Source: Bradyrhizobium sp. ORS 278
GTDB lineage: Bacteria > Pseudomonadota > Alphaproteobacteria > Rhizobiales > Xanthobacteraceae
Reading direction: 5' to 3'
Assembly: GCF_000026145.1 (NCBI RefSeq)
Contig: NC_009445.1
Span: forward strand, 3,410,001-3,474,000
DNA: 64,000 bases
The first letter of the stretch is position 1. Each line of letters begins with the position of its first letter. Below are positions 1 through 17,879 of the stretch, piece after piece. Position numbers and translations under genes: made by a program. The notes beneath the pieces were generated by a model. The model did no database searches, was not told where the DNA came from, and saw only the letters and a list, made by a program, of their open reading frames with translations.

Positions 1-1
1 G

Positions 2-1282
2 CCGCCCGCGCGATGGCAGGAGCTTGCCGATCTCGACATTGCGTTGCTGGAGATCACCCCGGACCCGGTTACCAAGAAGGCTGCACAACCGATCCACTTC
101 GGAACGGACGGCTTGCCGCGCGACAAGATGCTCCAAATCAGCTTCGCCGGTTTCCCGAGACTGATGACGATCAGAAACAGCGACAATCGGGACGTCAGAC
201 AGCTGTTCGGAGAAGCCGCGCCCGCCACCGGCGTCAAGCAGAACATCTATACGATCGACATCAACAAGGGACGGCCTGCGAAGTCTGACGAAGAATGGAA
301 GGGCGCGTCGGGCGCTGCGGTGTTCTCGCAAGGCCAGCTGATTGCTGTGCTGACCGTCAAGATCGTGGACGGCATGGACGATTTCAGCGCGATGCGCCTC
401 GATGCCGCTCTTCGCGATCCCGATTTCCGCCAACGCGTTGCCGCGTCACAGGCGGCGATTTCGACCAAAGGCGCCGCCGAATCCAACCTCAATCTGGGCC
501 GGCTCGTCTGCCTGGTCGATCGCGATCCACAAGACAGCGCATTTCGAACCGCGTATCGAAAGCTGCTCGACGACAGGCGGGTTCGGCCGTTGTGCTGCCT
601 GATCTATGGCGGCGCCCGGCATCGGCCGATCGACCTGGCTGACCGCTTCGCGCTGGTGACGATCCCTGAACTGCGCAAGCTGAGGCCTGGCGAGACATCG
701 CCATTCAAGCCGATAAATTGGCCCAGCAGCGAGGTCGACGTTACCAACGGTCTCGCAACCTTGCGCGCGCTGCTCTGGAATGTTCTGTGCGACGAGGATG
801 GCAGTGAGGTTCCTGTCGAGCCGGCTGCGTTCAGGGAGCGTCTTTGTGACGAGAGCCGCCCGCACTTCTTCGTCTCGGAGCTTTCGCCAACGCAGCTGAC
901 GGCGGAAAGCGCGGTGTTGTGGAGCGCCTGGCTCGCGTTTCTCGAATCTGTTGCGGTCTACGAGCTGTCACGTCCGCCGCTGCACATCTTCCTGGTCACC
1001 GATGCAACGCGCGCTCAGATCGAGGCGTGGCTGAAGCAGATTACGCCGGCGAAGGAGGTTGCGCTGCCGTCGTTTGCTGAGCTTGGCGCCTGCAAATGGA
1101 TCGATTTCGGCGAATGGATCGATCGTCGAGTTCCCAAAATCGTGCCGGCGTTGGCCGCGGAGGCGACGCAAATCAAGGATGATCTCGAGAGTGAGCTCGA
1201 CCAGATGCTCGGCGGCCCGCGAGAGTTCACAGCTTCCGACCTGAAGACGGTCGTCCGTAAAGTGCGTCGGATGGCGAGATAG
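2..1282 (+). CDS. Trypsin-like serine protease with long C-terminal domain (5' end outside window)
   Basis: The reading frame is open from base 2 and shows 426 residues; its start lies left of the window. Two parts of a chymotrypsin-type triad are visible: Asp in DLDIALLEI (codon 35-37) and Ser in KGASGAAVF (codon 308-310). The His should be upstream. The region after about residue 160 is not protease. It begins with a strand like LVCLVDRDP and resembles the Rossmann-like inactive STAND adaptor domains described next to MoxR/vWA conflict systems; that is inference from pattern. The C-terminus is helical and basic. It is the first gene of a four-gene cassette, 10 bp before the AAA+ ATPase. The natural role is probably signal-triggered proteolysis. 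Confidence 0.75.
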   Translation, partial: PPARWQELADLDIALLEITPDPVTKKAAQPIHFGTDGLPRDKMLQISFAGFPRLMTIRNSDNRDVRQLFGEAAPATGVKQNIYTIDINKGRPAKSDEEWKGASGAAVFSQGQLIAVLTVKIVDGMDDFSAMRLDAALRDPDFRQRVAASQAAISTKGAAESNLNLGRLVCLVDRDPQDSAFRTAYRKLLDDRRVRPLCCLIYGGARHRPIDLADRFALVTIPELRKLRPGETSPFKPINWPSSEVDVTNGLATLRALLWNVLCDEDGSEVPVEPAAFRERLCDESRPHFFVSELSPTQLTAESAVLWSAWLAFLESVAVYELSRPPLHIFLVTDATRAQIEAWLKQITPAKEVALPSFAELGACKWIDFGEWIDRRVPKIVPALAAEATQIKDDLESELDQMLGGPREFTASDLKTVVRKVRRMAR

Positions 1283-1292
1283 AGGGCTTTCG

Positions 1293-2402
1293 ATGGTCGA
1301 GTCGATTTATGCAGGCGTTGGGTCCGCAACTAAGGAGCCGAAGCTTCCCGAACCGATTGAACCGCACTTCCGCAAGAGCTCCGGCTACATCCCGAGCCCC
1401 GCGTTGAAGGCTGCGGTCGACGTTGCGATGATCCTGGGCCAGCCGCTTTTGCTCACGGGTGAGCCCGGCACCGGCAAGACGACGCTCGCCCGCGCGGTCG
1501 CCGACGAATTGTTCGACGGACGCTATCTCGAAATGCAGGTCAAATCCTCTACCAGCCGCACCGATCTGCTCTATCGGATCGACGAGCTGGGACGCTTTCG
1601 CGACGCGCAACCGCAGCGCATGACCAAGCCGACGATCGCCTATGTCGAGTTCCAACCGCTTGGCGAGGCGATCATCCGCTCTTGCGGTCCGGATGCTCCG
1701 CTCAGCGACAGGGCCGGGCGTCCGCTCAGCGGTGACGAGCCGGTTCTCGATGAGATTTTCGGCAAACGTCCGGGTCGTCCCGACGGCGCTCCGACCACAC
1801 GGATGCTGCTGCCTCATGCGACGAATTGGACGAGGCAGGAACGCTGGGTCGTGCTGATCGACGAGATCGACAAGGCGCCGCGCGACGCGCCGAACGATCT
1901 TCTCGAGGAGTTCGAACGTCTCTCGTTCGCGATCCCGGAGCTAGGCCTGCGCGTCGATCCACCCGAGAAGGCGCCAAGACCGGTGGTGTTCATCACGAGC
2001 AACAGCGAGAAGAGCCTGCCCGAGGCATTTCTGCGGCGCTGCGCCTTCCACCACATCGAGTTTCCCGACAACGACATGCTGCGCCGGATCATCGAAAGCC
2101 GCCTCGGCGGCCTGGTGTTTTCCGACGAAGACCAGCTCGACCAGCTGCTCACGCTGTTCAATGACCTGCGAAAGGCGCTGCGCAAGCCGCCGAGCACATC
2201 CGAATTGTTGAACTCGCTCCGGCTGCTCAAGGCGAACCCCAAGATTGTCGCCACGACAGACTTGCGCGACCACGTCGACGAACTCAAGAGTCAGCTGAGC
2301 GCACTCGCGAAGATGCCGGAAGATATCGTCAGAGCCAAGACGATCATCGATGCCTGGGCCGCGGACCCGGCCCGGAGCCGCGCCCAGGCAGCAAAGCCGT
2401 GA
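1293..2402 (+). CDS. MoxR-type AAA+ ATPase
   Basis: A 369-residue single-domain AAA+ ATPase of the MoxR group. Walker A GEPGTGKTT lies near residue 57, Walker B VVLIDEID near 186, sensor-1 FITSNSEK near 233 and an arginine-finger-like LRRC near 247. MoxR proteins act as ATP-driven remodelling chaperones with a vWA-domain partner, and that partner fits the next gene, whose GTG start overlaps this stop codon (GTGA). The overlap implies translational coupling. The insert between Walker A and B (about residues 115-180) is longer than in plain MoxR and names no known domain. The C-terminal helical lid is present, so the gene looks intact. Confidence 0.9.
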   Translation: MVESIYAGVGSATKEPKLPEPIEPHFRKSSGYIPSPALKAAVDVAMILGQPLLLTGEPGTGKTTLARAVADELFDGRYLEMQVKSSTSRTDLLYRIDELGRFRDAQPQRMTKPTIAYVEFQPLGEAIIRSCGPDAPLSDRAGRPLSGDEPVLDEIFGKRPGRPDGAPTTRMLLPHATNWTRQERWVVLIDEIDKAPRDAPNDLLEEFERLSFAIPELGLRVDPPEKAPRPVVFITSNSEKSLPEAFLRRCAFHHIEFPDNDMLRRIIESRLGGLVFSDEDQLDQLLTLFNDLRKALRKPPSTSELLNSLRLLKANPKIVATTDLRDHVDELKSQLSALAKMPEDIVRAKTIIDAWAADPARSRAQAAKP

Positions 2403-5400
2403 CGGCCAGGGCGGATTGGCTCGACGATCCGCTGGTGCTGTGCACCTTCCTGCGCGAACGCGGTCTGCGTCTGGGGACCGGCGAGGCCTTGCGGGTCAGC
2501 GCCGTGCTCGACGAACTCGGCCGGCGCGGCACCAAGCCGCGCACGGCTCAAGAAGCGACGCGATGGCTCGCGCCGCTGGTGTGCACGAACGCGGCGCAGC
2601 AGGCGGTACTGCCACTGCTGTTGGCCGAATTCGAGAGCCTCTTCATCCCCGCTCCGGTCCCGCCGGCACCGCTACCAACGCTCCCGCCTGCCGAGCAAGA
2701 TCCGGCAGGCGCCGGCGCGAATTTGATGAAGAACCCGTTCGTCGCCGGCGCAATTTTGCTTGGCATGATCGGCCTCTTCGTCGCGCTGGCCTATGCGCTC
2801 GGGTTTCGCGTCTCCCCAGACCCTCCTCCTGTTTCCGATCCCAGGACCGCCGTGCAACCGCTGACCAGAGACTTCAGCTGGCTATGGATGCGGCTCTCAC
2901 AGGGTTTGAGTTTTGCGATCGTTCCGATCGGTTTCTGGCTGATGTTCTACAGCTGGTACCGCCGCCGCCCGGTCGTGCTGCAACGGGCACGCACGCGCGA
3001 CGCGCCGGACGAAAAGGCAAGACATTCGCTTGCCGAGTCGTCGGCCGACCGTTTCGTGCTGTTCGGTGCGCCGGAGCTGCGCCGGCCGCTGCAGGCGATG
3101 CGCGCACACCGGCTCGCCCCCTCGGCGGGATACGACTTTGCGCAAAGCGCTTGTGCGACCGCAAAGGCCGGCGGTTTCCTGACGCTGGTGCAGGATCTGC
3201 GGCCGATGCTGCCCGAATATCCGGTGCTCATCGAGCAGCTTTCGGGCAAGGATCATGTTGCCGCGCTCGGCCGCGCGCTTGCCGCGCGACTGACCGCCGA
3301 GCGACTGGCGGCAACGGTCTATGTGTTCTCGACCGATCCACGCATGCTGCGCGGCGACACCCGTCGCCTGCTCGGGCTTGGCGATGTCCTCAGCCGCCAT
3401 GGCGATGACACCATCCTTCTGGTCAGCGACGGCGATGTGCTGATCGACCCGCTGACGGGCGCAGCGAACGCCTACGCGCTCGAGCTGCTGGCCTGGGCCA
3501 ATCCGGTGCTGCTGACGCCAGTGCCGCTCGCGCGCTGGTCGCGCCGCGAGCAGGTGTTGGCTGAAGCCGGCCTGCTGGTGATGCCGGCCACGCCGGAAGG
3601 CCTGGCGCAGCTCGCGCTGAAGCTTGCGGGCAATGCCGAGCTGCAAAGCCCGGCCTTGCGGCTGCCTGCTGCACAGTGCCGCGCGGTCCGACGCGACATC
3701 CACGCCAGCCTCGCCTGGCACCATGACGAACCGATACCCGCACCGGAAGAGCGCGAGGAGATCATTGATGCGATCGCGGCGGAGCTTCCCGCCGCGGCGT
3801 TCGAACTGCTTTGCGTGCTCGCCCGATTCCCCGATGTCCGCCTCGATCTCACGCTGCACATGGGGCTGATGCTGAAGCGACGCAACGGCGATCCGCTGCT
3901 CGACGAAGAAAGCTTTGGCGCGCTGGCGTGGCTGCCGTGGATGCGGCTCGGCCGTCTTCCGGACTGGCTTCGTCTCGACCTGGTTCAGTGCCTGTCGGCG
4001 AAACGGCGCGAGGAGGCGCGACAGCTCTACGATCTCTGGCTGGCGCAGGGGCTCCCGCAACAGGGAGGTGACGATACACCGATTGCCTATGAGCCGGGAG
4101 CTTTCGCGCGACTGTTGCGCCGCCACGTCGCCAGCGATCCGAGCACGCCCCTGCGCGATGTGATCTTCCTGAAGTCGCAACGCGGCGAGGAGATCAGCGA
4201 CATCGACCTGCGCGCCCCGGACGTACTGCGCCGGCTGCTACGTCCGGGCTTTCTCGACCCAGAATGGATTGCCGGCGCGGTGGCGCTCGGACTCGCGGTT
4301 TTGGCTTTCGTCTATGCGCCGGAGCTCGTTGCGCTTCGCAAAACCCGGACGATTGACGGGGTGCCAGGCGCGATATCAATCGTGGCCGGCTCCGCCGCTT
4401 CGATCATCACCTGGCATCTCGCAGCTTATCTTGAGCGCTGGCGAGCGTGGCTTACGATCACCAATGTCGTATCGGTTCTGCTCTTGCTCGTGACGCAAGC
4501 GATTGTGATCGTCGACGTAGCACCTAACGATCTCTTTCGGGCGGCTATGGCAAGTCTCTTATTGCCAGGGTTTGTGCTCGCCTTGGTCCCTGCCAAAATT
4601 GAGCCTCTGGACCAACTGCTGCCGTTCCGTGATCTGTCGACCTTTCTCTACCTGCTGGCCGGCGTCCTGTATGCGGTCGTGATGATCGATGTCGCGAACA
4701 AGTCGACCGATGGCATTCTCGTTGCGGCGATCGGCGTAACACTTCTAGCCGCTATCCTGAGCAACATTGTCAATCTTCCACTGGTGTTCATGTTGATAGG
4801 CGCAATTCTTGGTGGGATCTTCTCTTATTTTCCTGCTGTGGCAGTCGTCTTGTTGCTCCAATGGCTCGTACGCCCTGGTGATTTCGAAAACGTTCTGTCG
4901 CTCCAATCGTGGGTCCACATTGGGATCATCACAGCGGTCTATGGCGCGATGCTCGCGGCCGTGACGCTGCGACGCATCCGCCTGACCCGGTTTCTCATCA
5001 TCGCCGCGCTCGGTATTGTCGGTATTCTCGTAGCCACAATCGCAAATGCAATGTTCGATGTACCCTCTGCGCCATCGAGGGCGCCACAGCACCTGACACC
5101 CCTTCGACTGTGGTCGAGTTACGTGCCGTCGGGCGGCCTTTGCCTGGTGCTGACATTGCTTGCGCTGGTGCGACCCGATGCCCTGACCTCCCGCCCGGTG
5201 GTTCGCGGCGGGCTCGTCTATATGGTGACTGTCTTTGCGGCCGGTCTGCTGATCGGCGTGCTCTCCGATAGCTCCCCCAATGATTTCGCCAGCAGCAACT
5301 ACCGCATGTTTAGCGTGCCGGTGAGGCAGATCGGAGCCGCAATCGGCCACGCCGTGCAGTTCCTGTTCGTGCCCGGTGCGATCGCGGCGATCATGGCCGC

Positions 5401-6598
5401 CCTTGCCAACGCCGAGGCGCGCCAGAACGGAGCGTCCGCCAGCGCATCGCCCTGGCGCGCATTTGCGGCGGTGTATGCGCCGCCGCTATGGCTGGTCGCG
5501 ATCCCACCGCTCGGGCTCCTCACGGTTCAGGGAGCTCTGTTCGGAACGACATTCGGCGCGCCGCTTCTGTTCATCCCAGCGGCGGCGGCGCTCGGCAGCC
5601 ATTTCGGGACGGCGTCATGGCCCGCCGTCATCATCGGCGGATTGCCATTTTTCCTCTATCTCGATTTTGCCCCGCTGAAGACCATCGCCAGTCCTGGCAT
5701 ATTCCTGACGGCGCTGCTCGTGCATCGACTGTTTGCCGATCCGACGTTTCGCACACGCGTCTTGTTCGCGACCTCGCTGGCGCCGATCCAGCTGACGGCA
5801 ATCATCCTGCTGCTCGGAAGCACTTACCAGTTCGCGATCGGGTCGGACCCCAGCGGCAGCGGATCGGCCGAGCTCGCCCTCTATTATGTTCTGTTTCTGT
5901 TGGGCGCATCGCGCATTCCGAAGGTTCCAGTCACCGGCGTACTACTCGCCGTGGCGGTCGTGACATTTGCTGTCAATTTCTCTGTAGATCGACTGATAGG
6001 CACCAATCCGATGTCAGCCGTCGAATGGCCAGTTTATCTGACGCTCGGCTTCACTCATCCATCGGAGATCACGACCCCGCTCGCGTTCCTGCTCCTTGGA
6101 GGCTACCTCTTTCACTGGCAGCTCCCCCGTGCCCTTCAGCGAGAAGAGAGTCGAAACGGAGAGACCGCGAATGTGGCGAGCGCGCTGGCCGGCGTCCTGC
6201 TGCTGTGTGTTGTCCTGAGCCATGCCGAGTTGCGCGGCAGCTCGCTGGGAAGAACAGCCTTCGATGGCCTGATCGGCGCAGCAGTCTTCCAGCCCTTGAT
6301 CTTCATGCTCGGCATGGCCCTCGGCTGGCGCGGCGTCCTGCTCTCCGCCGCCATTTTGCTTGGCGGTGAATTCCTTCCCGCCTTATTGTCCGGCTCTGGC
6401 AAGCTCGCGTTAGCCTTTAACGTCTGGGATCTTAAAGTCGCGATGAGCTATCCCAGGCCAATCGATGTTCTAACGTCTCGGTTCGATGATCTCGCCTTCG
6501 CGCTGTTCGGTTGGCGCGTGATGCTCGCATTCAGGCCCTCCGTCGCGAGCGGTGCCGTCGATGCAAGGGCCGAGGCGCCGATGCCAAAGGCGGCATGA
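2399..6598 (+). CDS. Giant vWA-like / polytopic membrane protein (MoxR partner)
   Basis: A 1399-residue protein starting at GTG inside the stop of the MoxR gene. Residues 1-85 form a helical domain like the N-termini of vWA partners. Two membrane helices follow (about 118-140 and 178-200). Residues about 210-420 form a Rossmann-like domain with strands YPVLIEQLS, TVYVFSTDP and ILLVSDGD, which resembles the vWA-like domains beside MoxR genes but lacks a clear DxSxS metal site. A soluble helical part runs to about 615. From about 622 to 1380 the protein is almost continuous membrane helix, perhaps 18 or more segments. It is likely the inner-membrane platform of the cassette. The membrane part matches no transporter family I recognise. 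Confidence 0.7.
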   Translation: MTARADWLDDPLVLCTFLRERGLRLGTGEALRVSAVLDELGRRGTKPRTAQEATRWLAPLVCTNAAQQAVLPLLLAEFESLFIPAPVPPAPLPTLPPAEQDPAGAGANLMKNPFVAGAILLGMIGLFVALAYALGFRVSPDPPPVSDPRTAVQPLTRDFSWLWMRLSQGLSFAIVPIGFWLMFYSWYRRRPVVLQRARTRDAPDEKARHSLAESSADRFVLFGAPELRRPLQAMRAHRLAPSAGYDFAQSACATAKAGGFLTLVQDLRPMLPEYPVLIEQLSGKDHVAALGRALAARLTAERLAATVYVFSTDPRMLRGDTRRLLGLGDVLSRHGDDTILLVSDGDVLIDPLTGAANAYALELLAWANPVLLTPVPLARWSRREQVLAEAGLLVMPATPEGLAQLALKLAGNAELQSPALRLPAAQCRAVRRDIHASLAWHHDEPIPAPEEREEIIDAIAAELPAAAFELLCVLARFPDVRLDLTLHMGLMLKRRNGDPLLDEESFGALAWLPWMRLGRLPDWLRLDLVQCLSAKRREEARQLYDLWLAQGLPQQGGDDTPIAYEPGAFARLLRRHVASDPSTPLRDVIFLKSQRGEEISDIDLRAPDVLRRLLRPGFLDPEWIAGAVALGLAVLAFVYAPELVALRKTRTIDGVPGAISIVAGSAASIITWHLAAYLERWRAWLTITNVVSVLLLLVTQAIVIVDVAPNDLFRAAMASLLLPGFVLALVPAKIEPLDQLLPFRDLSTFLYLLAGVLYAVVMIDVANKSTDGILVAAIGVTLLAAILSNIVNLPLVFMLIGAILGGIFSYFPAVAVVLLLQWLVRPGDFENVLSLQSWVHIGIITAVYGAMLAAVTLRRIRLTRFLIIAALGIVGILVATIANAMFDVPSAPSRAPQHLTPLRLWSSYVPSGGLCLVLTLLALVRPDALTSRPVVRGGLVYMVTVFAAGLLIGVLSDSSPNDFASSNYRMFSVPVRQIGAAIGHAVQFLFVPGAIAAIMAALANAEARQNGASASASPWRAFAAVYAPPLWLVAIPPLGLLTVQGALFGTTFGAPLLFIPAAAALGSHFGTASWPAVIIGGLPFFLYLDFAPLKTIASPGIFLTALLVHRLFADPTFRTRVLFATSLAPIQLTAIILLLGSTYQFAIGSDPSGSGSAELALYYVLFLLGASRIPKVPVTGVLLAVAVVTFAVNFSVDRLIGTNPMSAVEWPVYLTLGFTHPSEITTPLAFLLLGGYLFHWQLPRALQREESRNGETANVASALAGVLLLCVVLSHAELRGSSLGRTAFDGLIGAAVFQPLIFMLGMALGWRGVLLSAAILLGGEFLPALLSGSGKLALAFNVWDLKVAMSYPRPIDVLTSRFDDLAFALFGWRVMLAFRPSVASGAVDARAEAPMPKAA

Positions 6599-6599
6599 C

Positions 6600-7622
6600 A
6601 TGGCATCCTCGGTCTCATCCCCCACTTTCGTGCGCGGTCAATGCACCGTGCACTATGCCTCAAGCGCAAGCATTGGCTATCGATTTCGGCCGAGCCTGAT
6701 CCTGATCGCTACGAAGGATGAGAAGCTGGGGCAGCCGGAGTCGGTTGATCTCGGTGACGGCATGCAGCGGCCGGTTCGTCTGCTGGCGTCGCGCACCGGC
6801 ATTGGCGGCCGCGTGTCGCTGCTGGCGATCGAGGGCATCGGTGGGCCGTCCCTGGATGATGATAGTGCCAGCGAAGTGCTGTCTGAGCGACCGATCGATT
6901 TTACCGAAGCCGTGGCGCTTCGCGCCGACGAAGGGGGAGCCGTCGCGGGATACATCTTGAGTTTTCAGGGCTCGGACCGGCGCATGGATTTTATTACGGC
7001 GGAAGAGCCTGAATTGACGATCGGGTCCCCGGTGTTCATCGGCGATCGCTTCATCGGGATTGTTGCGCGCAACCGATCGCCGCCGGAGCAATGGCTCGTT
7101 ACGCCGATCCGGCTTGCCGAGCTTTTCTTCGATACGGAACGGCGACAGGCGATCGAGACCGCGACCGGCAAGCAACTGGGCGAGCAATTCCTCGCGCTGG
7201 TGCGTTCGTTCAAGGCTCATGTCACGCGCCTCTGGTCGCTGTACGAGCTGGTCGAAAGCCCTGAGTTCAAGCTCCATTTGGTGAGATCGGAGGTCGGCCC
7301 GACGTCGGCACCAGCCGAAGGCAAGGCACCAATCCAGGACAATGGCAGCGCCCGCGAATTCAACGCCGCCGCCGGGGCGTTGCGAGACCGCGCTGCGCAA
7401 TTTGCCGACGCTGTGCTGCACGAGGCGCCCGAGGGCGTGTGGACGCCGCTCGGCCGGCCGCCTCGGCAGTTTCCGCTGGCTCCGGCGGTCCCGGTGGCCT
7501 GGGCCATCGTCCTGCTGCTGCTCCTGCTGTCAGGCGCGGGCATTCTTGCTGTGCTCGGCACTCCCTCGCAGCTGCAGCCCGACACCAAACCACCGGTTGA
7601 GCAGCTCAAAGGTGCTGGTTGA
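6600..7622 (+). CDS. Protease-like protein without nucleophile, C-terminal membrane anchor
   Basis: ATG at 6600 starts one base after the previous stop; an earlier in-frame ATG at 6552 would overlap the upstream gene by 47 bases and is less likely. The 340-residue product has a beta-rich N-terminal half ending in ELTIGSPVFIGDRFIGIVA. This matches the trypsin-like GDSGSPVF strand-turn-strand, with the catalytic Ser position occupied by Ile, so the domain is probably inactive. A helical linker follows, then one membrane helix near residues 296-318 and a short tail. A tail-anchored dead protease-like domain suggests a sensor or scaffold for the active protease at the start of the cassette; this is inference. 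Confidence 0.55.
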   Translation: MASSVSSPTFVRGQCTVHYASSASIGYRFRPSLILIATKDEKLGQPESVDLGDGMQRPVRLLASRTGIGGRVSLLAIEGIGGPSLDDDSASEVLSERPIDFTEAVALRADEGGAVAGYILSFQGSDRRMDFITAEEPELTIGSPVFIGDRFIGIVARNRSPPEQWLVTPIRLAELFFDTERRQAIETATGKQLGEQFLALVRSFKAHVTRLWSLYELVESPEFKLHLVRSEVGPTSAPAEGKAPIQDNGSAREFNAAAGALRDRAAQFADAVLHEAPEGVWTPLGRPPRQFPLAPAVPVAWAIVLLLLLLSGAGILAVLGTPSQLQPDTKPPVEQLKGAG

Positions 7623-8359
7623 GCGCCAAAGAGATCTCTCTCGGCCGAGGTTGCGACGTCGTGCCGTCCCGTTGGCAGGTTGAGAAACTGAGGGTCGCAG
7701 CCGGTGTTGGTCAGAATCGTTGGCAGCGCGTCGCAGCCGGCCGGGATCGGATCGACCTACCGGGCAATGATCTGCCAGAAGGTCACGCCGAGGCCCTGGC
7801 CGGCACGGCACGACAGGTCAGGCGTCTCGTCAAGGCGGCGCAGGCTGCGGAGGGCGGCGAGCCCCGCATTGCAAGCTCTGGTAATACAGAACGCCGCCTG
7901 GAGTCTGTGCTACCAGATCACAGTCGGCACTGATCGGGTGGGAGAAGGCCTGGAAGAGAACGGGGCCGGACTCTCTGAGGGGCAGTCGGCCTGAGGACGG
8001 GCGGCCGGTTTGCGGGACTGCATGCGGTTCACGGCGAGCCTCGCACTGGCGACGCTCATTGCGGTTGGCGCCTCTCGCCATCTCTCAGAACCCCGCGACC
8101 TGTCGATCGCATGGCGGCGTAGCACAGCGAAGATTCGGCGATATGCGGGCCCGGAGTTGCTGTGACACAATCGACCTATGTCGCCGTGCGGCCATTGCCC
8201 GAGTGAGTTGCGCGCTCCGACCGATGCGAGGTCCTGCAAGCTCCTGAATCCGGCGTATCCTCCCGTGAGCTTCGCACGCCGTTCCATAGGGGCAGGGTGC
8301 CGTCGGGCGGCTAAAGCTCGCGCCGATCTGGATGAGCTCATCTGGACGGTCACCCGCCG
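7623..8359. other. 737-bp gene-poor stretch after the conflict cassette
   Basis: No reading frame here has convincing protein character on either strand. Short frames are arginine-rich translations of the opposite strand. The only ordered signal is a 12-bp perfect palindrome, GATGAGCTCATC at 8331-8342, 17 bp before the next gene. The stretch may hold promoters or decayed island sequence. Confidence 0.5.
8331..8342. promoter_or_regulatory. 12-bp palindrome upstream of winged-helix gene
   Basis: GATGAGCTCATC is a perfect dyad 17 bp upstream of the GTG at 8360. Its position suits an operator used by the downstream HTH protein itself. A single short palindrome can occur by chance. Confidence 0.3.
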
Positions 8360-9073
8360 GTGACGATCGTCCGTCGCGTGCACAGGGCGCAGTTCACCAT
8401 CGTCCCGAACGCGGTCTTCGCGGATACCCGTCTCTCTGTCCAGGCCAAGGGTGTCCTCGGCTATCTCTTGTCGCGCCCCCACAACTGGCATGTCCGCCTC
8501 GATCATATCGGGCGAACCCTCCTGGTCGGCCGCAAGAAGCTGCAGCGTATTTTCCGAGAGTTGATCGCCGCCGGCTACGTCACACGCGAAGCACAACGAA
8601 TTGTCGACGGACATCGGTTCGGTGAGATTGATTACGTCGTCCGTGACGTGCCGGCGCCTGTGGATAAGTCGGCGCGTCCGCGGGGTCGAAAGGGACCTGC
8701 GGCTCCGCGGGTCCAAAAGGGACCTGCGTATAAAGACTCACCGCAGGGCCCTGAGGGACCTGCCTATAAAGAACGATATAAAAACAGACCTGATCTGCTG
8801 GGAGCACGCGCTTTCGATGGTTGGCCTGACGTCGTCGGCACGGCGCACGATGAGATGGCCGAGCTCCAGGATGACGCCTGCCTCGATCCGAGGATTGTCG
8901 AGCTTTTCGACGATGCTGCTGAAGGTTGGGAGTTGATTGTCGCGCTTCCGGACCCGGCACGGGACGAGTTGCTTCAACGCTACCGGCGGGGCGAGCTCGA
9001 TCGGTTTGCGATCATGGAGCTCCGGACCCGATACCGACATTTGCTGGGTGGCGGTCGGCCGAAGGGCAGGTAA
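8360..9073 (+). CDS. Winged-helix (HTH_36-type) replication-like protein of mobile element
   Basis: A 237-residue protein. Residues about 8-75 form a winged-helix domain of the HTH_36 type (FTIVPNAVFADTRLS, then GRKKLQRIFRELIAAGYVTR), common in replication initiators and replisome organisers of plasmids, phages and integrated elements. The middle is a low-complexity linker with the motif KGPA repeated (KGPAAP, KGPAYK, EGPAYK). The C-terminus is acidic then basic and unassigned. It sits between the conflict cassette and the excisionase/integrase pair, so it probably belongs to the island's maintenance module. The start is GTG; an alternative GTG at 8378 is possible. Confidence 0.6.
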   Translation: MTIVRRVHRAQFTIVPNAVFADTRLSVQAKGVLGYLLSRPHNWHVRLDHIGRTLLVGRKKLQRIFRELIAAGYVTREAQRIVDGHRFGEIDYVVRDVPAPVDKSARPRGRKGPAAPRVQKGPAYKDSPQGPEGPAYKERYKNRPDLLGARAFDGWPDVVGTAHDEMAELQDDACLDPRIVELFDDAAEGWELIVALPDPARDELLQRYRRGELDRFAIMELRTRYRHLLGGGRPKGR

Positions 9074-9578
9074 GCGATCCGACTCGCGGGGCCGCCCAGA
9101 TTGTGCTGGGTGCAGTGACGTGACGAAGCTCCAAACCGCTGGGGGGAAGCCGGCGGGGCGGTCCAGGGGGCCGAACCGGAAGCTATGCCGTGTATCGTCC
9201 TGATCTCTGCCTGCTCGTGAACGTGGGCTGCAAGGCCCAGAGCGGGCGCAGGAGACTGAAGCGAAGGGATTGGGCTCTAATCCGCGCGGTCTGCTTTGAG
9301 CCACTCCAACGACTTCCGGAAGGATTTGGAGAGCTGTGGAACCGAAGGCGCAGCAAAGGGGCAACAGTCGCCACACGATGTTGACACTGCGGCTGCCCTC
9401 TTAGCTGGTCTCGGCATCCGCGCTTCGCTGCCAGTTCAATTCAGCCAGAATTCCCAACTATCCCAATTATGCGACATCGTATCCGAAACTCCGCCTAGGG
9501 GATTTCAGATGTTGCCAAGCATTAGCTTCGCCATCATCCGTCGGATCTGCGTGCCTTCGATGTCGCCGCGGCAATCAA
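9074..9578. other. 505-bp stretch without a supported gene
   Basis: Frames here are short and overlap without protein-like composition. The last 150 bp are richer in A+T than the surroundings (around 9440-9510) and probably hold the promoter of the small HTH gene at 9579. Confidence 0.45.
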
Positions 9579-9824
9579 ATGAAGCGAGAACAACCCAAGA
9601 TGCCAAAGCGCGAACCGATGCTTCGAAACGCTGCGGACAAGCTCTGCCTCACTGTTCCTGAGGCTGCCGTACTGTGTTCGCTCGGACAGACTTCCCTCTA
9701 CAAGGCCATCAAAGAAGGGCGGCTGCGAATCCGAAAGTACGGCACGCGGACGATCATCACGCGCGCAGATCTGGCCTCTTTCTTGGAAAGCCTGCCCGAG
9801 GCGACCAAGCAGCCCGAGCGGTGA
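9579..9824 (+). CDS. Excisionase-like helix-turn-helix protein
   Basis: An 81-residue MerR-like winged HTH protein of the excisionase/AlpA type (HTH_17). The diagnostic part is LTVPEAAVLCSLGQTSLYK followed by IKEGRLRIRKYGTRTIITR and a helix ending in FLESLP. Such proteins help integrases excise or set directionality by bending attachment-site DNA. It converges on the integrase gene, the usual xis/int pairing in integrated elements. A second in-frame ATG at 9600 would shorten it by seven residues. Confidence 0.75.
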   Translation: MKREQPKMPKREPMLRNAADKLCLTVPEAAVLCSLGQTSLYKAIKEGRLRIRKYGTRTIITRADLASFLESLPEATKQPER

Positions 9825-9856
9825 CATCCTCGGCGGGGCAGGGATAGTTTGAACTT

Positions 9857-11084
9857 TCAGGCGACCTTCATCGGGGTCACATTGCTCTTTGGTGGTTGCG
9901 TTGCGAAGTCCGCGAATGTCTGCATCACATGCAGTCGCTTCTTCAGGGCCTCGCCGCGCTTATAGGCCTTTTCCGGCATCATCGCCCGTGATGTGGTGCA
10001 GGCAATGCTCGACGATTTCCTCCTCGAAGTGGGTTTGCTCCTGCGCCCAGGTTCGAAACGTCGTGCGGAAGCCGTGCACTGTCAGGGAGTCGTCTCCGGT
10101 GAGCTCCTTGAGATATTTCAGCATGGTCATGTTGCTCATCGGCCGCTTTAAACTGCGCCCGGGAAACACGAATTCGTCATTGACCCGGCTCTCGTAAGCC
10201 TCGCGCAAATAGGTCAGCGTCTGCCGGGGCAACGGCGTACGCTTCAACCGCTCGTTCTTGGTGCCGAGAAAGCCAAGATCCCAGACTCCGTTATCGAGAT
10301 CGAGTTGCGCCCAGCGCATGTTCTGAACTTCGGCGGTTCGTCCCAGGGTCAGGATGATGACCTCGAGCGCCCGCGCGCTTTGCGTGGAGATGGCGCTGAG
10401 CTTGTGCATGAACGCCGGCAGGTCCTGGTAGTCCATCGCCTTGTGGCCGCCCCGTATCGTGCCACGCCGCCGCTGCCTGGGCATGATCGGTTGCAGTCGG
10501 CTGGCCCAGTCAGCGGGGTTGTCTTTCGGTCGCAGGTTGTGGGCGATCGCCGCGTCGAGAATCTTCTTGATGATCTGGCGAGCGGAGCGGGAGGTCTCGG
10601 GCTGCTGCCAGATTGGCATGAGCACGTTGACGACATGGGCGGTTTCGATCTCGTGGACCCAGTGCTTGTGGAGCGGGCGGCAGACGACCTGCACGATGCG
10701 CTTCAGCTTTGCCCTGGCGGCCTTGTGCCCCATGCCGATCTCGTAGGTTCGCCGCCATTCCTCGGCGAATTCGCCGAACTGGCGCGATCCCTGAATGCGG
10801 CGTTTCTCGACGTCACGGTGCTCTCGCGGATCGGTCCCCTTCGCTAGCAGCCGCAGAGCGTCAATCGCCTTGTCCCGGGCCTCGGAGAGCTTCAGGCCGG
10901 TTTCCTTGGCCGAGCCAAAACCCATCTTCTTGACGATGCCGTTGCGCTGGTAGCGGAACGCCCAGCGGCGGCCGCCGCTTGGGGTGACGATCAGGTAGAG
11001 GGTGTTGCCGCACGGGTATTCGCCGGGCCCGACGGAGAGATAGTTCTTGGCGGTGATCTCGGGCTTTTGAGTTAGAAACTGCAT
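9857..11084 (-). pseudogene. P4-type tyrosine integrase, frameshifted before catalytic Tyr
   Basis: From ATG at 11084 the frame carries an Arm-binding N-terminal domain (DUF4102 type, TLYLIVTPSGGRRWAFRYQR), a core-binding domain and a catalytic domain with LGRTAEVQNMRW and HGFRTTFRTWA. The frame as read stops at 9960 after GDDAGKGL. Removing one C of the CC at 9973-9974 restores DDAEKAYKRGEALKKR and a further 34 codons to a stop at 9857-9859, as in intact P4-type integrases. The catalytic Tyr codon (9962-9964) therefore lies beyond the shift. The gene sits 230 bp from the 3' end of tRNA-Arg, its probable attachment site. A sequencing error is the alternative. An upstream in-frame start at 11168 is less likely. 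Confidence 0.85.
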
Positions 11085-11312
11085 GGGAGATTCGAAACTC
11101 CTGTCCCTCGCCGAAAAATGCAGCGTTTCAGGTGAGGGGGATTCTAACTCAGATCGAGGGATGGCCAAATGGACGGTCTGGCGGAGTTAGCCGACGACCG
11201 CCGATCGTACGCTGGAGTCTCCCAAACTACGAAAAACCACGATCTGACAAGCGCTTATCGTGGGCTTCGGTGATGGTCGGCGATGGCGGGTGAAGGGGGG
11301 CGAAGGCGGGCT

Positions 11313-11389
11313 TGGCGCGCTCGGAGAGATTCGAACTCCCGACCCTCGGAATCGAAATCCGATGCTCTATCCAGCTGAGCTACGAGCGC
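11313..11389 (-). tRNA. tRNA-Arg(UCG)
   Basis: A complete cloverleaf reads on the minus strand: acceptor GCGCTCG pairs with CGAGCGC, D-stem GCTC/GAGC, anticodon loop TTTCGAT giving anticodon UCG, T-arm GGGAG-TTCGAAT-CTCTC, and encoded CCA at 11315-11313. Length is 77 nt with CCA. The 3' end faces the integrase gene, so this is the likely insertion point of the left island. Confidence 0.95.
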
Positions 11390-11483
11390 GTGCTGACCAT
11401 CTCGATCCGGATATCAGACTTGGTCAGCCAAGACCAGCCCAAGACGGCATTGCCAGTTGCGATGGTGGCGATGCCAAGGGGCG

Positions 11484-11750
11484 TCAGAAGCAGGGATGCC
11501 GACGACGGTCCTGACCGATATAGGCGGCTGAGCTCTGGTAGCAGTGATTGGTCGACGGGCCGTCGTAGAACGCAAAGGTGCCGGGCAGTGGGCCGGGACC
11601 GTAATTGTGCAGGTAGCTGATCGCGTAGGGCAAGCCTGGGTGATTGCGATGGTGATGGTAACGGTGATGGCTGCGCGCCTCCGCAGCGGCGGGAGCCAGG
11701 GCCGCAACGACGACAATCAGGGCAGCGGCCGACAATGCGAGCTTGCTCAT
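11484..11750 (-). CDS. Small secreted histidine-rich protein
   Basis: An 88-residue protein with a clear signal peptide (hydrophobic ALSAAALIVVVAALAPAAA, cleavage after AEA) and a mature part rich in His, Tyr and Gly (SHHRYHHHRNH). Two Cys remain in the mature part. The His cluster could bind metal, but no family is recognised. It is followed at a distance by a divergently read gene at 11959; the 208 bp between them should hold both promoters. Confidence 0.7.
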   Translation of the reverse strand: MSKLALSAAALIVVVAALAPAAAEARSHHRYHHHRNHPGLPYAISYLHNYGPGPLPGTFAFYDGPSTNHCYQSSAAYIGQDRRRHPCF

Positions 11751-11958
11751 GTTCTTGTCTCCAGAGGGAGCGGTAGGGCGGCCAACGGGCCGGTTCTCTA
11801 ACCCGACAAGGGCTCAAAGGATGCGCAAGAACAGCCGTTTTGTCAAAATTTTGGCCTTTTCCGCATGCTTAAGACATCTGTGACAAGGTATCGCGGATGC
11901 CGTCGGGCCGTGGGGCCTCGCCGCGAGCCGAGTTGAGACCGGGTTTCCCGTCCGATCC

Positions 11959-12402
11959 ATGAACCGCCTGCTCCCATGCGTCGTGCTTTCGCTGATCGCC
12001 GCGACCCCGGCGTATGCCGATCTGCACATCACACGCGATCATGGCGGGTATATCGAAGAGTACAAGGCCAAGTACAGGCACATCCGCGATACGCGCCAGC
12101 GTGTCATCATCGACGGCATTTGCAACTCGGCCTGCACCCTGGTATTCGGCATCGTGCCGTTGAACAGGATCTGCGTTACGCCCAGGGCGAGCATCGGGTT
12201 CCATCAGGCCTATTACGACAAGGCATTCACGTTCGGGATCAAGGTCACCAGCATCGAGGGGACGACCGAGCTGATGTCGTTCTATCCAGAGACGGTGAAG
12301 TCCTGGATCCGGCGCAATGGCGGGCTGACGACCGAGATGAAGAAGATCACGAACGGCGTCGAGCTCTGGAAGATCGTCGATCCCTGTCCCGATTCCTGGT
12401 GA
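11959..12402 (+). CDS. Secreted ClpP/crotonase-fold-like protein
   Basis: A 147-residue protein with a signal peptide ending at AYA-DLH. The mature part resembles periplasmic ClpP-like proteins: ICNSACTLVFG places a Ser before Ala-Cys at the nucleophile position, and SIGFHQAYY places a His where the general base sits. The fold would be a small crotonase-type alpha/beta domain. Four Cys could form disulfides in the periplasm. Whether it cleaves peptides is unknown; the call rests on motif order, not on a search. Confidence 0.55.
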   Translation: MNRLLPCVVLSLIAATPAYADLHITRDHGGYIEEYKAKYRHIRDTRQRVIIDGICNSACTLVFGIVPLNRICVTPRASIGFHQAYYDKAFTFGIKVTSIEGTTELMSFYPETVKSWIRRNGGLTTEMKKITNGVELWKIVDPCPDSW

Positions 12403-12518
12403 GCGGCGCACCTCCCACATCTTATAGAGGCTGCAACGCCGCGATCAGGGCCGTTCCAGGCGCGGGCTCCGGACATGACCGCAGCGGGTCATGACAGCAG
12501 CCATTCCGAACAAACGCA

Positions 12519-12570
12519 CGAAACAATCCAGCGCCAGATCGTCCCCATGACCGGGCACTGGATTGTTTCG
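12519..12570. repeat. Short inverted repeat between convergent genes
   Basis: Perfect 13-bp arms CGAAACAATCCAG and CTGGATTGTTTCG flank a 26-bp spacer. No T-run follows on either side, so it is more like a genomic palindromic repeat than a classic terminator, though it lies between convergent genes. Confidence 0.6.
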
Positions 12571-12622
12571 CCGAGACCCTCGGGACAGGTGACGACCCCG
12601 CCGTCGGTCTCGACCAAGCAGG

Positions 12623-12904
12623 TTAGCGCTTGGCCTTCTTGGTCTTCTTGGCCGCCTTCTTGGTGGCCTTCTTCGCAGTCTTTTTCGCTGCCTTCTTCAC
12701 GGTCTTCTTGGCCGACTTCTTGGTCGCAACCTTCTTGGCCTTGGCGGCGGCCCGCTTGGGTGCGGCTTTCTTCGCGGCTTTCTTGGCCGTCTTCTTGGAA
12801 GCCCGCTTCGCCTTCGGCGCTGCGGCAGTGGTCGGATCGGCCGCAGCCTCGGGCGGTGCGCTCGGTGCGGCGACGGTCGGGTCGGTCAGAGTGGTGTCGT
12901 CCAT
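12623..12904 (-). CDS. Histone H1-like lysine/alanine-rich protein
   Basis: A 93-residue protein from ATG at 12904, with GGGGG upstream as a fair ribosome site. The N-terminal 35 residues are acidic and Pro/Ala-rich; the rest is almost wholly Lys and Ala in KKAAKK/KKTVKK repeats, like the C-terminal domain of eukaryotic H1 and bacterial Hc1-type or AlgP-like proteins. It should bind DNA non-specifically and help compact the nucleoid. The repeats are slippage-prone at DNA level (AGCCTTCTTGG-like units). It has its own promoter and no operon partner. Confidence 0.8.
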   Translation of the reverse strand: MDDTTLTDPTVAAPSAPPEAAADPTTAAAPKAKRASKKTAKKAAKKAAPKRAAAKAKKVATKKSAKKTVKKAAKKTAKKATKKAAKKTKKAKR

Positions 12905-12974
12905 ATCGGTCCCCCGATGTGTTGGAAACCTTGCGACGATAGCTGGATTCTCCCGGCTGTCAAAGCGAGCGCAA

Positions 12975-14420
12975 CTAATCACTTGTGCGCAAGCTCGCAT
13001 AAGCCGCCAGCGCACGCTCGCGCCCCTGCTTGTGATCGATGATCGGCGTGGGGTAGGAGCGTCCGAGCGTGACACCGGCCTCGGCGAGCTCAAGCGGCTT
13101 GGCCGCCCACGGCTGATGGATCACCCCGGCAGGAAGTCGCGCAAGCTCCGGAACCCAGCGCCGCACATAGCTGCCGTTGGCATCGAACTTCTCGCCCTGC
13201 AGCACAGGGTTGAAGACGCGGAAGTAGGGCGCCGCATCCGCCCCGGAGCCGGCCACCCATTGCCAGCTCGCCGGGTTGCTGCCCGGGTCGGCGTCCACCA
13301 GCGTGTCCCAGAACCATTGTTCGCCCTGCCGCCAGTCGATCAGCAGGTGCTTCACCAGCAGCGAAGCAGCCACCATGCGGACGCGGTTGTGCATGCTGCC
13401 GGTGTGCCATAGCTCGCGCAGTCCGGCGTCGACGATCGGATAGCCGGTCCGCCCGCGCTGCCAGGCGGCGAGTGCAGCATCGTCCTGAACCCAAGGGAAG
13501 GGATCGAAGGACGGTTGCAGATTGCGGCTGGCGAGGTCCGGATTGTTGTAGAGCAGGTGGCGGCTGAACTCGCGCCAGCCGATCTCGCTCAGGAACTTGT
13601 CGATCCCCTTCGCCTGCGCGGGGCGCTCCTCGGCCGCGAAGCGGGCGGCGTGCCAGATCTGCCGCGGAGTGATTTCGCCAAAACGTAAATGCGGCGACAA
13701 CCGCGACGTGGCGTCGATGTCGGGGCGGTCGCGATCGGCGGCGTAGCCGCTGACGGTGCTCTCGAGGAAGCTCCGGAGGCGCTGCTGCGCGGCGCGCTCG
13801 CCGGCCTGCCACGTGGCGCGCAGGCCGCCCGCCCAGTCCGGTTTGGTCGGCTCCAGCCTCAGGTCATCCACGGTGAGGCCGGTGACGTCCGGCACCATGG
13901 GCAGCCTCGCCGGTGTCGGCAGCGGCTTCGGCGGATCGCCGAGGGCCAGCACGCGCTTCCAGAACGGCGTGAACACGCGCGGGCCGCGTCCATCCTTTCC
14001 GCTCATGGTCGCCGGATCGACCAGCAGGTCGTCTGGAAACACGCGTGACGCGACGCCGATGTGATCGAGGTCGGCCTCGACGGAGGCGGCCACCCGGCGC
14101 GGTCCCGCTTGAGCGACATCGTTCCAGTACACTGCGCTGGCGTTGGTCTCGCGTGCGAGCTGGCCGAGAACCTGCGCCGCCGGCCCGCGGCGGATCACCA
14201 GATCAGAGCCGAGCGACTGCAACTCAGTGCGCAGCGCACGCAGCGATTGTGCAAGCCACCATCGCGTCGCTCCTCCGAGTTGCCGAAGCCCCGGACTCTC
14301 CTGATCGAACACGTAACTACAAACAACGGGGCCGCCAGCCTGTGCCGCAGTATACAACGCCGGGTGGTCAGATAGTCGCAGGCTCTCGCGAAACCATACG
14401 ATGATAGGGGGGGGAGCCAT
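12975..14420 (-). CDS. phrB: Deoxyribodipyrimidine photo-lyase
   Basis: A 481-residue class I CPD photolyase/cryptochrome-family protein starting at ATG 14420. The N-terminal alpha/beta antenna domain starts IIVWFRESLRLSDHPAL. The FAD-binding helical domain shows LSPHLRFGEITPRQIWHA, GWREFSRHLLY and WQWVAGSGADAAPYFRVFNP, the signature region. It repairs cyclobutane pyrimidine dimers using blue light. The catalytic-domain motifs are complete. It diverges from a chemoreceptor gene across 125 bp. RESLR replaces the more usual RDDLR at the start. Confidence 0.93.
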   Translation of the reverse strand: MAPPPIIVWFRESLRLSDHPALYTAAQAGGPVVCSYVFDQESPGLRQLGGATRWWLAQSLRALRTELQSLGSDLVIRRGPAAQVLGQLARETNASAVYWNDVAQAGPRRVAASVEADLDHIGVASRVFPDDLLVDPATMSGKDGRGPRVFTPFWKRVLALGDPPKPLPTPARLPMVPDVTGLTVDDLRLEPTKPDWAGGLRATWQAGERAAQQRLRSFLESTVSGYAADRDRPDIDATSRLSPHLRFGEITPRQIWHAARFAAEERPAQAKGIDKFLSEIGWREFSRHLLYNNPDLASRNLQPSFDPFPWVQDDAALAAWQRGRTGYPIVDAGLRELWHTGSMHNRVRMVAASLLVKHLLIDWRQGEQWFWDTLVDADPGSNPASWQWVAGSGADAAPYFRVFNPVLQGEKFDANGSYVRRWVPELARLPAGVIHQPWAAKPLELAEAGVTLGRSYPTPIIDHKQGRERALAAYASLRTSD

Positions 14421-14545
14421 TCTGAGGTATCTTATTGCTGTTTTTCCGGTGATGTCAGTATTCTTCCGGCCGGAAAATAATCTGATGGAAACCAAATACG
14501 GGCACTTTGAGATTCAGTTGCAGTTCTCCAGGAAGGTTTTCTGAC

Positions 14546-16249: not shown

Positions 16250-16297
16250 TTTGCCCGGCCGGATGGCGCTGACACCCATCCGAACCCTCGCTCTCTC

Positions 16298-16478
16298 GTC
16301 ATTCCGGGGCGCGCGAAGCGCGAGCCCGGAATCCATAACCACGAGCGGTCGTTGGTTCGAAGAGCGGTGCCACTCGCATCTCGCCACGCCACGACCGTTC
16401 GTGGTTATGGAATCCGGGCTCATTCGCGCTGCTTCAAGACGGCTTTGCCGTCTTGCGCGCGAATGCCCCGGAATGACG
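16298..16478. repeat. 181-bp imperfect palindromic element
   Basis: The ends are inverted copies of GTCATTCCGGGGC, and the inner arms CCATAACCACGA and TCGTGGTTATGG are also inverted. The structure would fold into one long hairpin. Such elements recur between genes in Bradyrhizobium. It lies between the chemoreceptor and dctM ends and might also slow convergent transcription. Confidence 0.75.
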
Positions 16479-16509
16479 GTGGGGAAAAAGGTCGCTGACG
16501 TCACATGGA

Positions 16510-17814: not shown

Positions 17815-17879
17815 GGGGTGGGGGAGTCCGCGGTGAGGAGGGCGACTGCGTTCGAAGTTTTGCGTTCGTCTGTCTCCAC

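What the first reader, a model, noticed from the sequence alone, without database searches (positions are those of the whole stretch)
2..7622. Four-gene protease / MoxR / giant vWA-membrane / dead-protease cassette
The order active trypsin-like protease, MoxR ATPase, vWA-like protein with an enormous membrane domain, and a nucleophile-less protease with a tail anchor is unusual. Spacing is 10 bp, a GTGA overlap and 1 bp, so all four are coupled. Established work links MoxR/vWA pairs with proteases and inactive STAND adaptors to counter-invader or regulated-death systems; the fusion of the vWA part to such a large membrane domain and the paired active/inactive proteases are not a form I recognise. 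It sits on an integrase-marked island, as defence systems do.
Basis: partly seen in the sequence, partly recalled or inferred. Interest (0 to 1): 0.88.

Follow-up and report, generated by a model that had tools for sequence, protein, structure and literature searches.

The report
Membrane-bound MoxR–protease conflict system variant
A five-gene bacterial operon beside an integrase looks like an unusual membrane-embedded version of a predicted anti-invader system (MoxR ATPase, vWA-like protein, protease sensor), with about 17 membrane spans where some relatives carry other domains and a probably dead protease as an extra partner.

Summary
Upstream lies a Trypco2 gene, and gene 1 proves to be a 499-aa trypsin–iSTAND protein with a complete His-Asp-Ser triad. 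The operon is Trypco2 / trypsin–iSTAND / MoxR / vWA-like protein with a ~17-span membrane domain / triad-less, probably trypsin-like protein with one C-terminal span.

This is the layout of the iSTAND MoxR–vWA "ternary conflict systems" predicted by Kaur et al. 2020, so it is a variant of a known kind. New relative to the passages read is what fills the slot after the vWA part. Two relatives carry OmpA or GUN4 there; here and in 7 of 20 compared proteins with this core it is a 16–20-span membrane domain. The first four genes recur in the same order on an Azospirillum lipoferum plasmid, where the fifth gene is a 106-aa one-span protein. The dead protease may be lineage-specific.

An integrase and tRNA-Arg lie alongside. 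A same-genus genome keeps both but has other cargo there. No second att site was found. Defence function is inferred, not shown. Sensor versus pore for the membrane domain is unresolved; I favour sensor.

The parts
1..1282 (+). Gene 1, 3' part of a 499-aa trypsin-iSTAND protein. It begins 217 bp left of the window's first base (L007:17783); a Trypco2 gene (L007:17451-17773, +) lies 9 bp further upstream, also outside the window.
   Evidence: PF13365 E 3.1e-6, PF19995 E 2.7e-5, Trypco2 PF19631 E 5.6e-28; triad H36/D85/S176 invariant in the 3 proteins aligned; Asp codon 35-37 and Ser codon 308-310 lie in the window, His is off-window
1293..2402 (+). MoxR-type AAA+ ATPase; GEPGTGKT Walker A, IDEIDK Walker B and LRRC stretch present
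   Evidence: PF07728 E 1e-14; alignment of 6 such ATPases; top five PDB rows are midasin
2399..6598 (+). vWA-like component: N-terminal domain, span before the vWA part, vWA-like and linker regions, then a large polytopic membrane domain (1399 aa)
3212..3598 (+). vWA-like alternating alpha/beta domain (residues 272-400); [DE]-x5-D at strand 1 and SDG at strand 4, no DxSxS
4235..6595 (+). Polytopic membrane domain (residues 613-1399, 17 hydropathy peaks), in the slot that holds OmpA or GUN4 in two relatives
   Evidence: no Pfam/PADLOC/NCBIfam match for gene 3; 41-44% identity to two orthologs against 72-74% for the vWA+linker part
6600..7622 (+). Gene 4: triad-less, probably trypsin-like protein with one C-terminal span (residues 302-320) and a short tail
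   Evidence: 51% identical to P0006; low-confidence model, 46 of the 50 Foldseek rows listed (of 274) are trypsin-fold proteases by title, none with E<=0.001; hhalign E 0.052, probability 1%, against gene 1 homologs puts Lys39 at the His position
7933..8241 (.). Right copy of a ~310-bp direct repeat (82%) whose other copy lies left of the cassette at window -1784..-1483; two matches in this genome at E<=0.001
8360..9073 (+). HTH_36-like protein; region conserved with the repeat in a same-genus relative (possible mobile-element backbone)
   Evidence: PF13730 E 5.2e-5, 23.4 bits, below cutoff 25; L067 match to 8106-9058
9579..9824 (+). Excisionase-like HTH_17 protein
   Evidence: PF12728 E 9.4e-10; TIGR01764 29.6 bits against 28.8 cutoff
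9960..11168 (-). Tyrosine recombinase (integrase)
   Evidence: PF00589 E 2.6e-13, PF13356 E 5.5e-15
11313..11389 (-). tRNA-Arg(tcg), possible integration site; no second copy of its 3' end found

Best explanation
The operon encodes a membrane-embedded variant of the iSTAND MoxR-vWA ternary conflict system. Class assignment about 0.85. Shown by sequence: trypsin-iSTAND, Trypco2, MoxR, a vWA-like core with hydrophobic spans on both sides, a polytopic C-terminal domain, and a triad-less, probably trypsin-like partner. Inferred mechanism, about 0.4 on its own: the polytopic domain sits in the inner membrane and reports a membrane disturbance (for instance phage entry) to the cytoplasmic vWA part. 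The MoxR ring then remodels the vWA/iSTAND complex, which frees or activates the trypsin domain of gene 1. The protease acts on the membrane complex or on cell proteins, halting the cell. Gene 4, a dead protease held at the membrane, is most likely a decoy or brake that occupies the protease's partner site. Trypco2 is a small regulator of the protease. The stated confidence covers the class together with membrane-located, MoxR-gated protease control, not the sensor detail alone.
For: Gene content and order. The same four-gene order with a 1411-aa giant (17 C-terminal hydropathy peaks) on an Azospirillum plasmid. All 7 loci with this core whose surroundings I read have MoxR next to it and a protease and/or iSTAND gene upstream. 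The slot after the core varies: OmpA, GUN4 as annotated, 16-20 spans, HSP20 after the spans in P0010. The membrane domain changes faster than the core, 41-44% against 72-74% identity. The only catalytic parts detected are the protease and the ATPase, which favours the protease as output, as proposed for the related VMAP systems in PMC10907252 (passages read). Inactive enzymes as decoys are a stated theme of these systems (PMC7159879 section 35, part 1 read). Related VMAP ternary genes are reported near type III CRISPR loci (PMC10910872, passages read).
Confidence: 0.5

Rival explanations
1. Effector reading (the direction proposed by Kaur et al.): iSTAND senses the invader, MoxR remodels the vWA protein, and the trypsin domain clips or unlocks it so that the polytopic domain becomes a lethal pore or depolarising channel. 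Gene 4 keeps the protease off or docks it.
For: Kaur et al. place effectors C-terminal to vWA and propose proteolytic deployment for some systems; PMC12839542 repeats this direction. The slot varies, and a C-terminal membrane module is shared by several giants.
Against: A 17-span domain cannot diffuse away after release. 16-20 spans are far more than pore-forming effectors usually need (recalled). No family matched gene 3.
Confidence: 0.3
2. Housekeeping-type MoxR-vWA machine: it assembles or inserts a cofactor into a membrane complex, as NorQ-NorD or RavA-ViaA do, with the protease as quality control, and is not a conflict system.
For: NorQ-NorD vWA rows in the fold comparison; membrane setting; a CcoG-like (name by eye) gene lies about 2.2 kb upstream of Trypco2 on the same strand, outside the operon.
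Against: No such target gene is among the five operon genes. Trypco2 and iSTAND were described from conflict systems. Patchy presence: 4 of 296 family genomes match gene 3 at E<=0.001, only the window's own at full length. Placed next to an integrase with different cargo in one relative.
Confidence: 0.15
3. Chance neighbourhood: unrelated genes gathered at an integration hotspot.
For: Different cargo at the same place in one same-genus genome; the fifth gene is not conserved in Azospirillum.
Against: Tight coupling; the same four-gene order in Azospirillum, at 27% (genes 1 and 3) and 45% (MoxR) identity.
Confidence: 0.03

Closest known systems
iSTAND MoxR-vWA ternary conflict systems (vWA-MoxR subsystem 2, Kaur et al. 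2020, PMC7159879; section 20 read)
   Same: Trypsin fused N-terminal to iSTAND, adjacent MoxR, vWA component with N-terminal TM segments in about 28% and a variable C-terminal domain; a membrane-proximal subset is expected by the authors
   Different: C-terminal slot holds a polytopic domain of about 17 spans; the section lists N-terminal TM segments and OmpA/PEGA/PASTA/Sel1 domains typically preceded by a TM, not such a domain. A triad-less, probably trypsin-like protein with one span follows. The DxSxS motif is absent.
Azospirillum lipoferum 4B plasmid AZO_p2 locus (NC_016586, AZOLI_RS19150 to RS32635)
   Same: Trypco2, trypsin-iSTAND, MoxR, 1411-aa vWA-like membrane protein in the same order and orientation
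   Different: 27% identity for genes 1 and 3, 45% for MoxR; fifth gene is a 106-aa one-span protein, no dead protease
Caulobacter vibrioides T5M6 locus (L016)
   Same: Trypsin protein, MoxR, vWA-like core in the same order
   Different: C-terminal slot is OmpA (PF00691 E 1.5e-14); iSTAND not called by Pfam; no Trypco2 by BLAST or in the one upstream ORF scanned
VMAP ternary systems with DGR-diversified vWA proteins (PMC10907252; passages read)
   Same: MoxR, vWA-fused variable part and N-terminal trypsin on the third component; supplies the sensor-on-vWA model
   Different: VMAP instead of iSTAND; sensor is a diversified CLec domain, here a membrane domain; a DGR was not searched for here

Membership tests
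iSTAND MoxR-vWA ternary system | Third component with iSTAND core and N-terminal peptidase/signalling domain | tested here: met
   Trypsin_2 28.4 bits (cutoff 27.6), iSTAND 25.0 bits (cutoff 24): both just over cutoff. Azospirillum counterpart scores 39.0 and 32.8 bits.
iSTAND MoxR-vWA ternary system | MoxR-clade AAA+ ATPase adjacent | tested here: met
   PF07728 55.2 bits, midasin best in PDB; the MoxR-specific helix-2 insert was not examined.
iSTAND MoxR-vWA ternary system | vWA fold in the next protein | tested here: inconclusive
   [not shown]
iSTAND MoxR-vWA ternary system | Two aspartates ending core strands 1 and 4 of the vWA domain | tested here: inconclusive
   E279 (Glu, not Asp) and D344 in the window protein; DxSxS absent in 21 of 21; strand ends taken from a predicted model.
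iSTAND MoxR-vWA ternary system | CoxE-type four-helix N-terminal domain of the vWA component | not tested
   Residues 1-199 were not in the folded piece; a conserved N-terminal stretch is seen in sequence only.
iSTAND MoxR-vWA ternary system | Variable C-terminal domain after the vWA part | tested here: met
   OmpA, GUN4 (as annotated), HSP20 after spans, polytopic domains among 21 proteins with the core.
iSTAND MoxR-vWA ternary system | Trypco1/2 neighbour where a trypsin is present (stated by Kaur et al. as frequent in VMAP systems) | tested here: met
   Trypco2 PF19631 in the window's operon and in Azospirillum. Not found in the other 6 loci by BLAST nor in 7 upstream ORFs of 6 loci scanned with Pfam.
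iSTAND MoxR-vWA ternary system | Counter-invader function | not testable with these tools
   Needs phage or plasmid assays.
MADS anti-phage system | MadB-family ATPase | tested here: not met
   NF047784 74.9 bits against a cutoff of 475.
Systems modelled in PADLOC-DB 2.0.0 | Any model for genes 3 or 4 | tested here: not met
   0 families for both at E<=1. The cut gene 1 gave two rows of E 0.007 and 0.03; gene 2 gave 15 ATPase rows, best TRIP13 E 4.5e-10.
Trypsin fold (gene 4) | Double beta-barrel protease fold | tested here: inconclusive
   Mean pLDDT 41.5; 46 of 50 listed Foldseek rows are trypsin-fold by title, many from the same DegS entries, best E 0.01; hhalign E 0.052, probability 1%; no Pfam match.
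MASE1 sensor domain (membrane part of gene 3) | Match to PF05231 | tested here: not met
   No match listed for gene 3 at E<=1 nor in the own genome at E<=0.001, with 4 of 14 control genomes positive.

The most novel reading that the evidence does not exclude
A membrane-integral branch of ternary conflict systems exists in which a 16-20-span domain fused to the MoxR-controlled vWA protein is itself the sensor of envelope breach, wired to an iSTAND-bound protease, and in one sublineage held in check by a membrane-anchored dead copy of a protease. It would be a bacterial surveillance complex combining an AAA+ ring, a polytopic membrane sensor and a protease/pseudoprotease pair.
Probability: 0.3. 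Interest if true: 0.75.

Novelty: new variant of a known kind. Interest (0 to 1): 0.52.

Why it matters
Two published models disagree on which end of a MoxR–vWA ternary system senses and which acts. A member whose variable domain is locked in the membrane makes the question testable: a domain that cannot be released must work in place, as sensor or pore. A dead protease next to a live one would offer a handle on how the protease is held off.

Tried and rejected
MASE1: the C-terminal membrane part looked MASE1-like by eye; Pfam gave no support. Internal duplication of the membrane domain: hhalign of its halves gave probability 0.1% (E 0.42), no support at this depth of 11 sequences, one of which (Azospirillum) my script had wrongly cut to 102 aa (cut mended, the hhalign was not repeated). 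Fold of the membrane domain: ten-residue pLDDT means mostly 30-69 in its first half and 41-86 towards the end; no PDB row with E<=0.001; the VIA list covers mainly model residues 21-314, so no statement on its fold is possible. Sequence search of the PDB with gene 3 and gene 4 profiles and the gene 1 sequence: nothing.

Wide surveys had limits. The single-sequence MoxR search caught MoxR-type proteins in 200 of 397 genomes at E<=1e-25 and is not informative. The MoxR-profile search found only the own genome among 385, but scored only 5 candidates per genome. The A2-profile search found 2 of 385, the own genome and one weak match with a stop inside. The PF19995 genome scan missed the own genome's known copy, so its 2 of 299 is likely an underestimate. 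Viral contigs: 5 stretches matched a pattern, none a relative. Phage records: no match to gene 3. Plasmids: 3 records match the gene 3 core and 25 match gene 1, 23 of them Streptomyces, of the listed rows all but Azospirillum covering at most half of gene 1, in its trypsin part. Genome contigs: 47 stretches matched a pattern, 1 a relative.

attL: the tRNA-Arg region against 58 kb upstream plus the window gave no convincing repeat; its 26-base 3' end occurs once in the genome with up to 3 mismatches. Flanking repeat against plasmids: no match. CoxE-like partners as a vWA yardstick from the loci: abandoned, pieces too short or off-target. Rfam: only the two tRNAs in window and L007.
Full report
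What is there. Genes 1-4 are present as described and tightly spaced. The window begins inside gene 1. The neighbouring genome stretch (L007; the window is bases 3410001-3474000 of a 7.46-Mb contig of an unnamed organism) completes it to 499 aa and adds an upstream gene of the Trypco2 family (PF19631, E 5.6e-28). Full-length gene 1 has a trypsin domain (PF13365, 28.4 bits, cutoff 27.6) and an iSTAND domain (PF19995, 25.0 bits, cutoff 24). His36, Asp85 and Ser176 are kept in the 3 proteins aligned. Gene 2 is a MoxR-type ATPase with motifs present; its best PDB relatives are midasin.

Gene 3 (1399 aa) has no Pfam, PADLOC or NCBIfam match. A first search gave P0001-P0004 and a profile search 13 proteins, the window's own included. 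I compared 21 proteins with the core: the window's, 13 P-entries (12 of the 13, plus P0004) and 7 loci; P0001 was dropped because it is the window protein. Hydropathy peaks after the core number 16-20 in 8 of 21 (window, P0002, P0003, P0010, P0011, P0012, P0014, Azospirillum), 7-10 in 3 (P0004, P0008, P0009) and 0-3 in 10; one of those ten, P0007, stops at the core. The C-terminal part of the membrane domain aligns between several giants (for example window with P0012 at 32%, E 3e-12), so it is a shared module in at least these cases. Between the window and its two orthologs the vWA+linker part is 72-74% identical and the membrane domain 41-44%.

Gene 4 (340 aa) has one relative besides its own record, P0006, 51% identical. 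Its model is poor (mean pLDDT 41.5). Of the 50 Foldseek rows listed (of 274), 46 are trypsin-fold proteases by title (DegS, HhoA, kallikrein 10 and others), none with E<=0.001. hhalign against gene 1 homologs gives E 0.052 with probability 1%, in a register that puts Lys39 at the catalytic His. By eye, Ile141 (Val in P0006) falls at the Ser and no Asp is in place. "Dead trypsin" is therefore likely, not proven.

Elsewhere. On the Azospirillum lipoferum 4B plasmid AZO_p2 the order is Trypco2, serine protease (trypsin and iSTAND by Pfam), MoxR, a 1411-aa protein annotated as O-antigen polymerase, and a 106-aa one-span protein. Seven loci with the core had their surroundings read (L016, L051, L052, L053, L056, L057, L058). 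All 7 have MoxR beside the core and a third component upstream: a trypsin-type gene in 5 (over the Pfam cutoff in L016, L051, L057, L058; below it, 24.7 against 27.6 bits, in L056), iSTAND by Pfam in 3 (L051, L052, L053) and not called in the other 4, a caspase gene in L053. Trypco2 was found in 1 of the 7. Two further loci from the iSTAND scan (L059, L060) showed no match to any cassette gene. In the window's taxonomic family 4 of 296 genomes matched gene 3 at E<=0.001, only the own genome at full length.

Island. An excisionase-like HTH (9579-9824), an integrase (9960-11168) and tRNA-Arg (11313-11389) lie to the right. In a same-genus genome (L065) the DNA matching window 7793-12405 and 12519-17841 is colinear at 89 and 87%, but within the 20 kb fetched nothing matches the cassette by BLASTN at E<=1e-10. 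Beyond 7793 it has other cargo: IS110-type and other transposase genes, a PCMT-like methyltransferase and a trypsin-domain protein. A ~310-bp direct repeat (82%) flanks the operon and has two matches in this genome; among 146 same-genus genomes 3, own included, hold a match. No second att copy was found. So the operon sits at an integrase-marked place whose cargo differs in the one relative compared; the element's limits are unknown.

Compared with print. Kaur et al. 2020 (PMC7159879; outline, sections 8, 20, 22 and 24, part 1 of 2 of section 35, and passages read) describe this class and predict a counter-invader role; their iSTAND section lists N-terminal TM segments and OmpA, PEGA, PASTA and Sel1 domains typically preceded by a TM. 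The 12 passages for transmembrane, TM helices, trypco and trypsin terms mention no polytopic giant in this class. Supplementary data were not read, so it may be listed there. PMC8195603 (section 6 and passages), PMC10907252 (passages), PMC12839542 (one passage) and PMC10910872 (passages) were also read in part. In the search listings I recognised, by title and start of abstract, no experimental paper on an iSTAND ternary system; most subscription papers and bioRxiv preprints are not held.

Verdict. A new variant of a known kind that I found no experimental test of. The class assignment is good, the fifth gene's place in the system is weak, and the direction of signalling is open. I favour the membrane domain as sensor because it cannot be released and because the protease is the only catalytic output detected besides the ATPase; the published proposal for iSTAND systems runs the other way.

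Noticed in passing
L065:15924-19250 (same-genus genome G1348, same integrase/tRNA-Arg place): Alternative cargo: a 660-aa protein with a hydrophobic stretch (by eye) and a strong trypsin domain (PF13365 E 6.5e-20), then a 444-aa protein without a family over cutoff. Possibly another protease-based cassette at the same place.
   Followed up: partly
[not shown]
   Followed up: no
L051:8386-12621 (Azospirillum lipoferum AZO_p2): The giant vWA-like membrane protein is annotated as O-antigen polymerase, so such proteins may hide under transporter or polymerase names.
   Followed up: no
P0010: A giant whose 19-peak membrane domain is followed by an HSP20 domain at the very C-terminus (residues 1392-1478, E 1.6e-6).
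   Followed up: no
P0014: A giant filed under Mycobacterium sp. KBS0706, while the other named relatives are Azospirillum, Caulobacter, an Ectothiorhodospiraceae MAG and two cyanobacteria; the record's name may be wrong.
   Followed up: no
L007:13775-15217 (window -4225 to -2783): A CcoG-like gene (name by eye) with four matches in this genome counting itself, one other copy 93% identical.
   Followed up: no
L057:2153-4879: A WD40 plus peptidoglycan-binding protein overlaps the end of a vWA-core gene by 4 bp, a further envelope-type partner.
   Followed up: no
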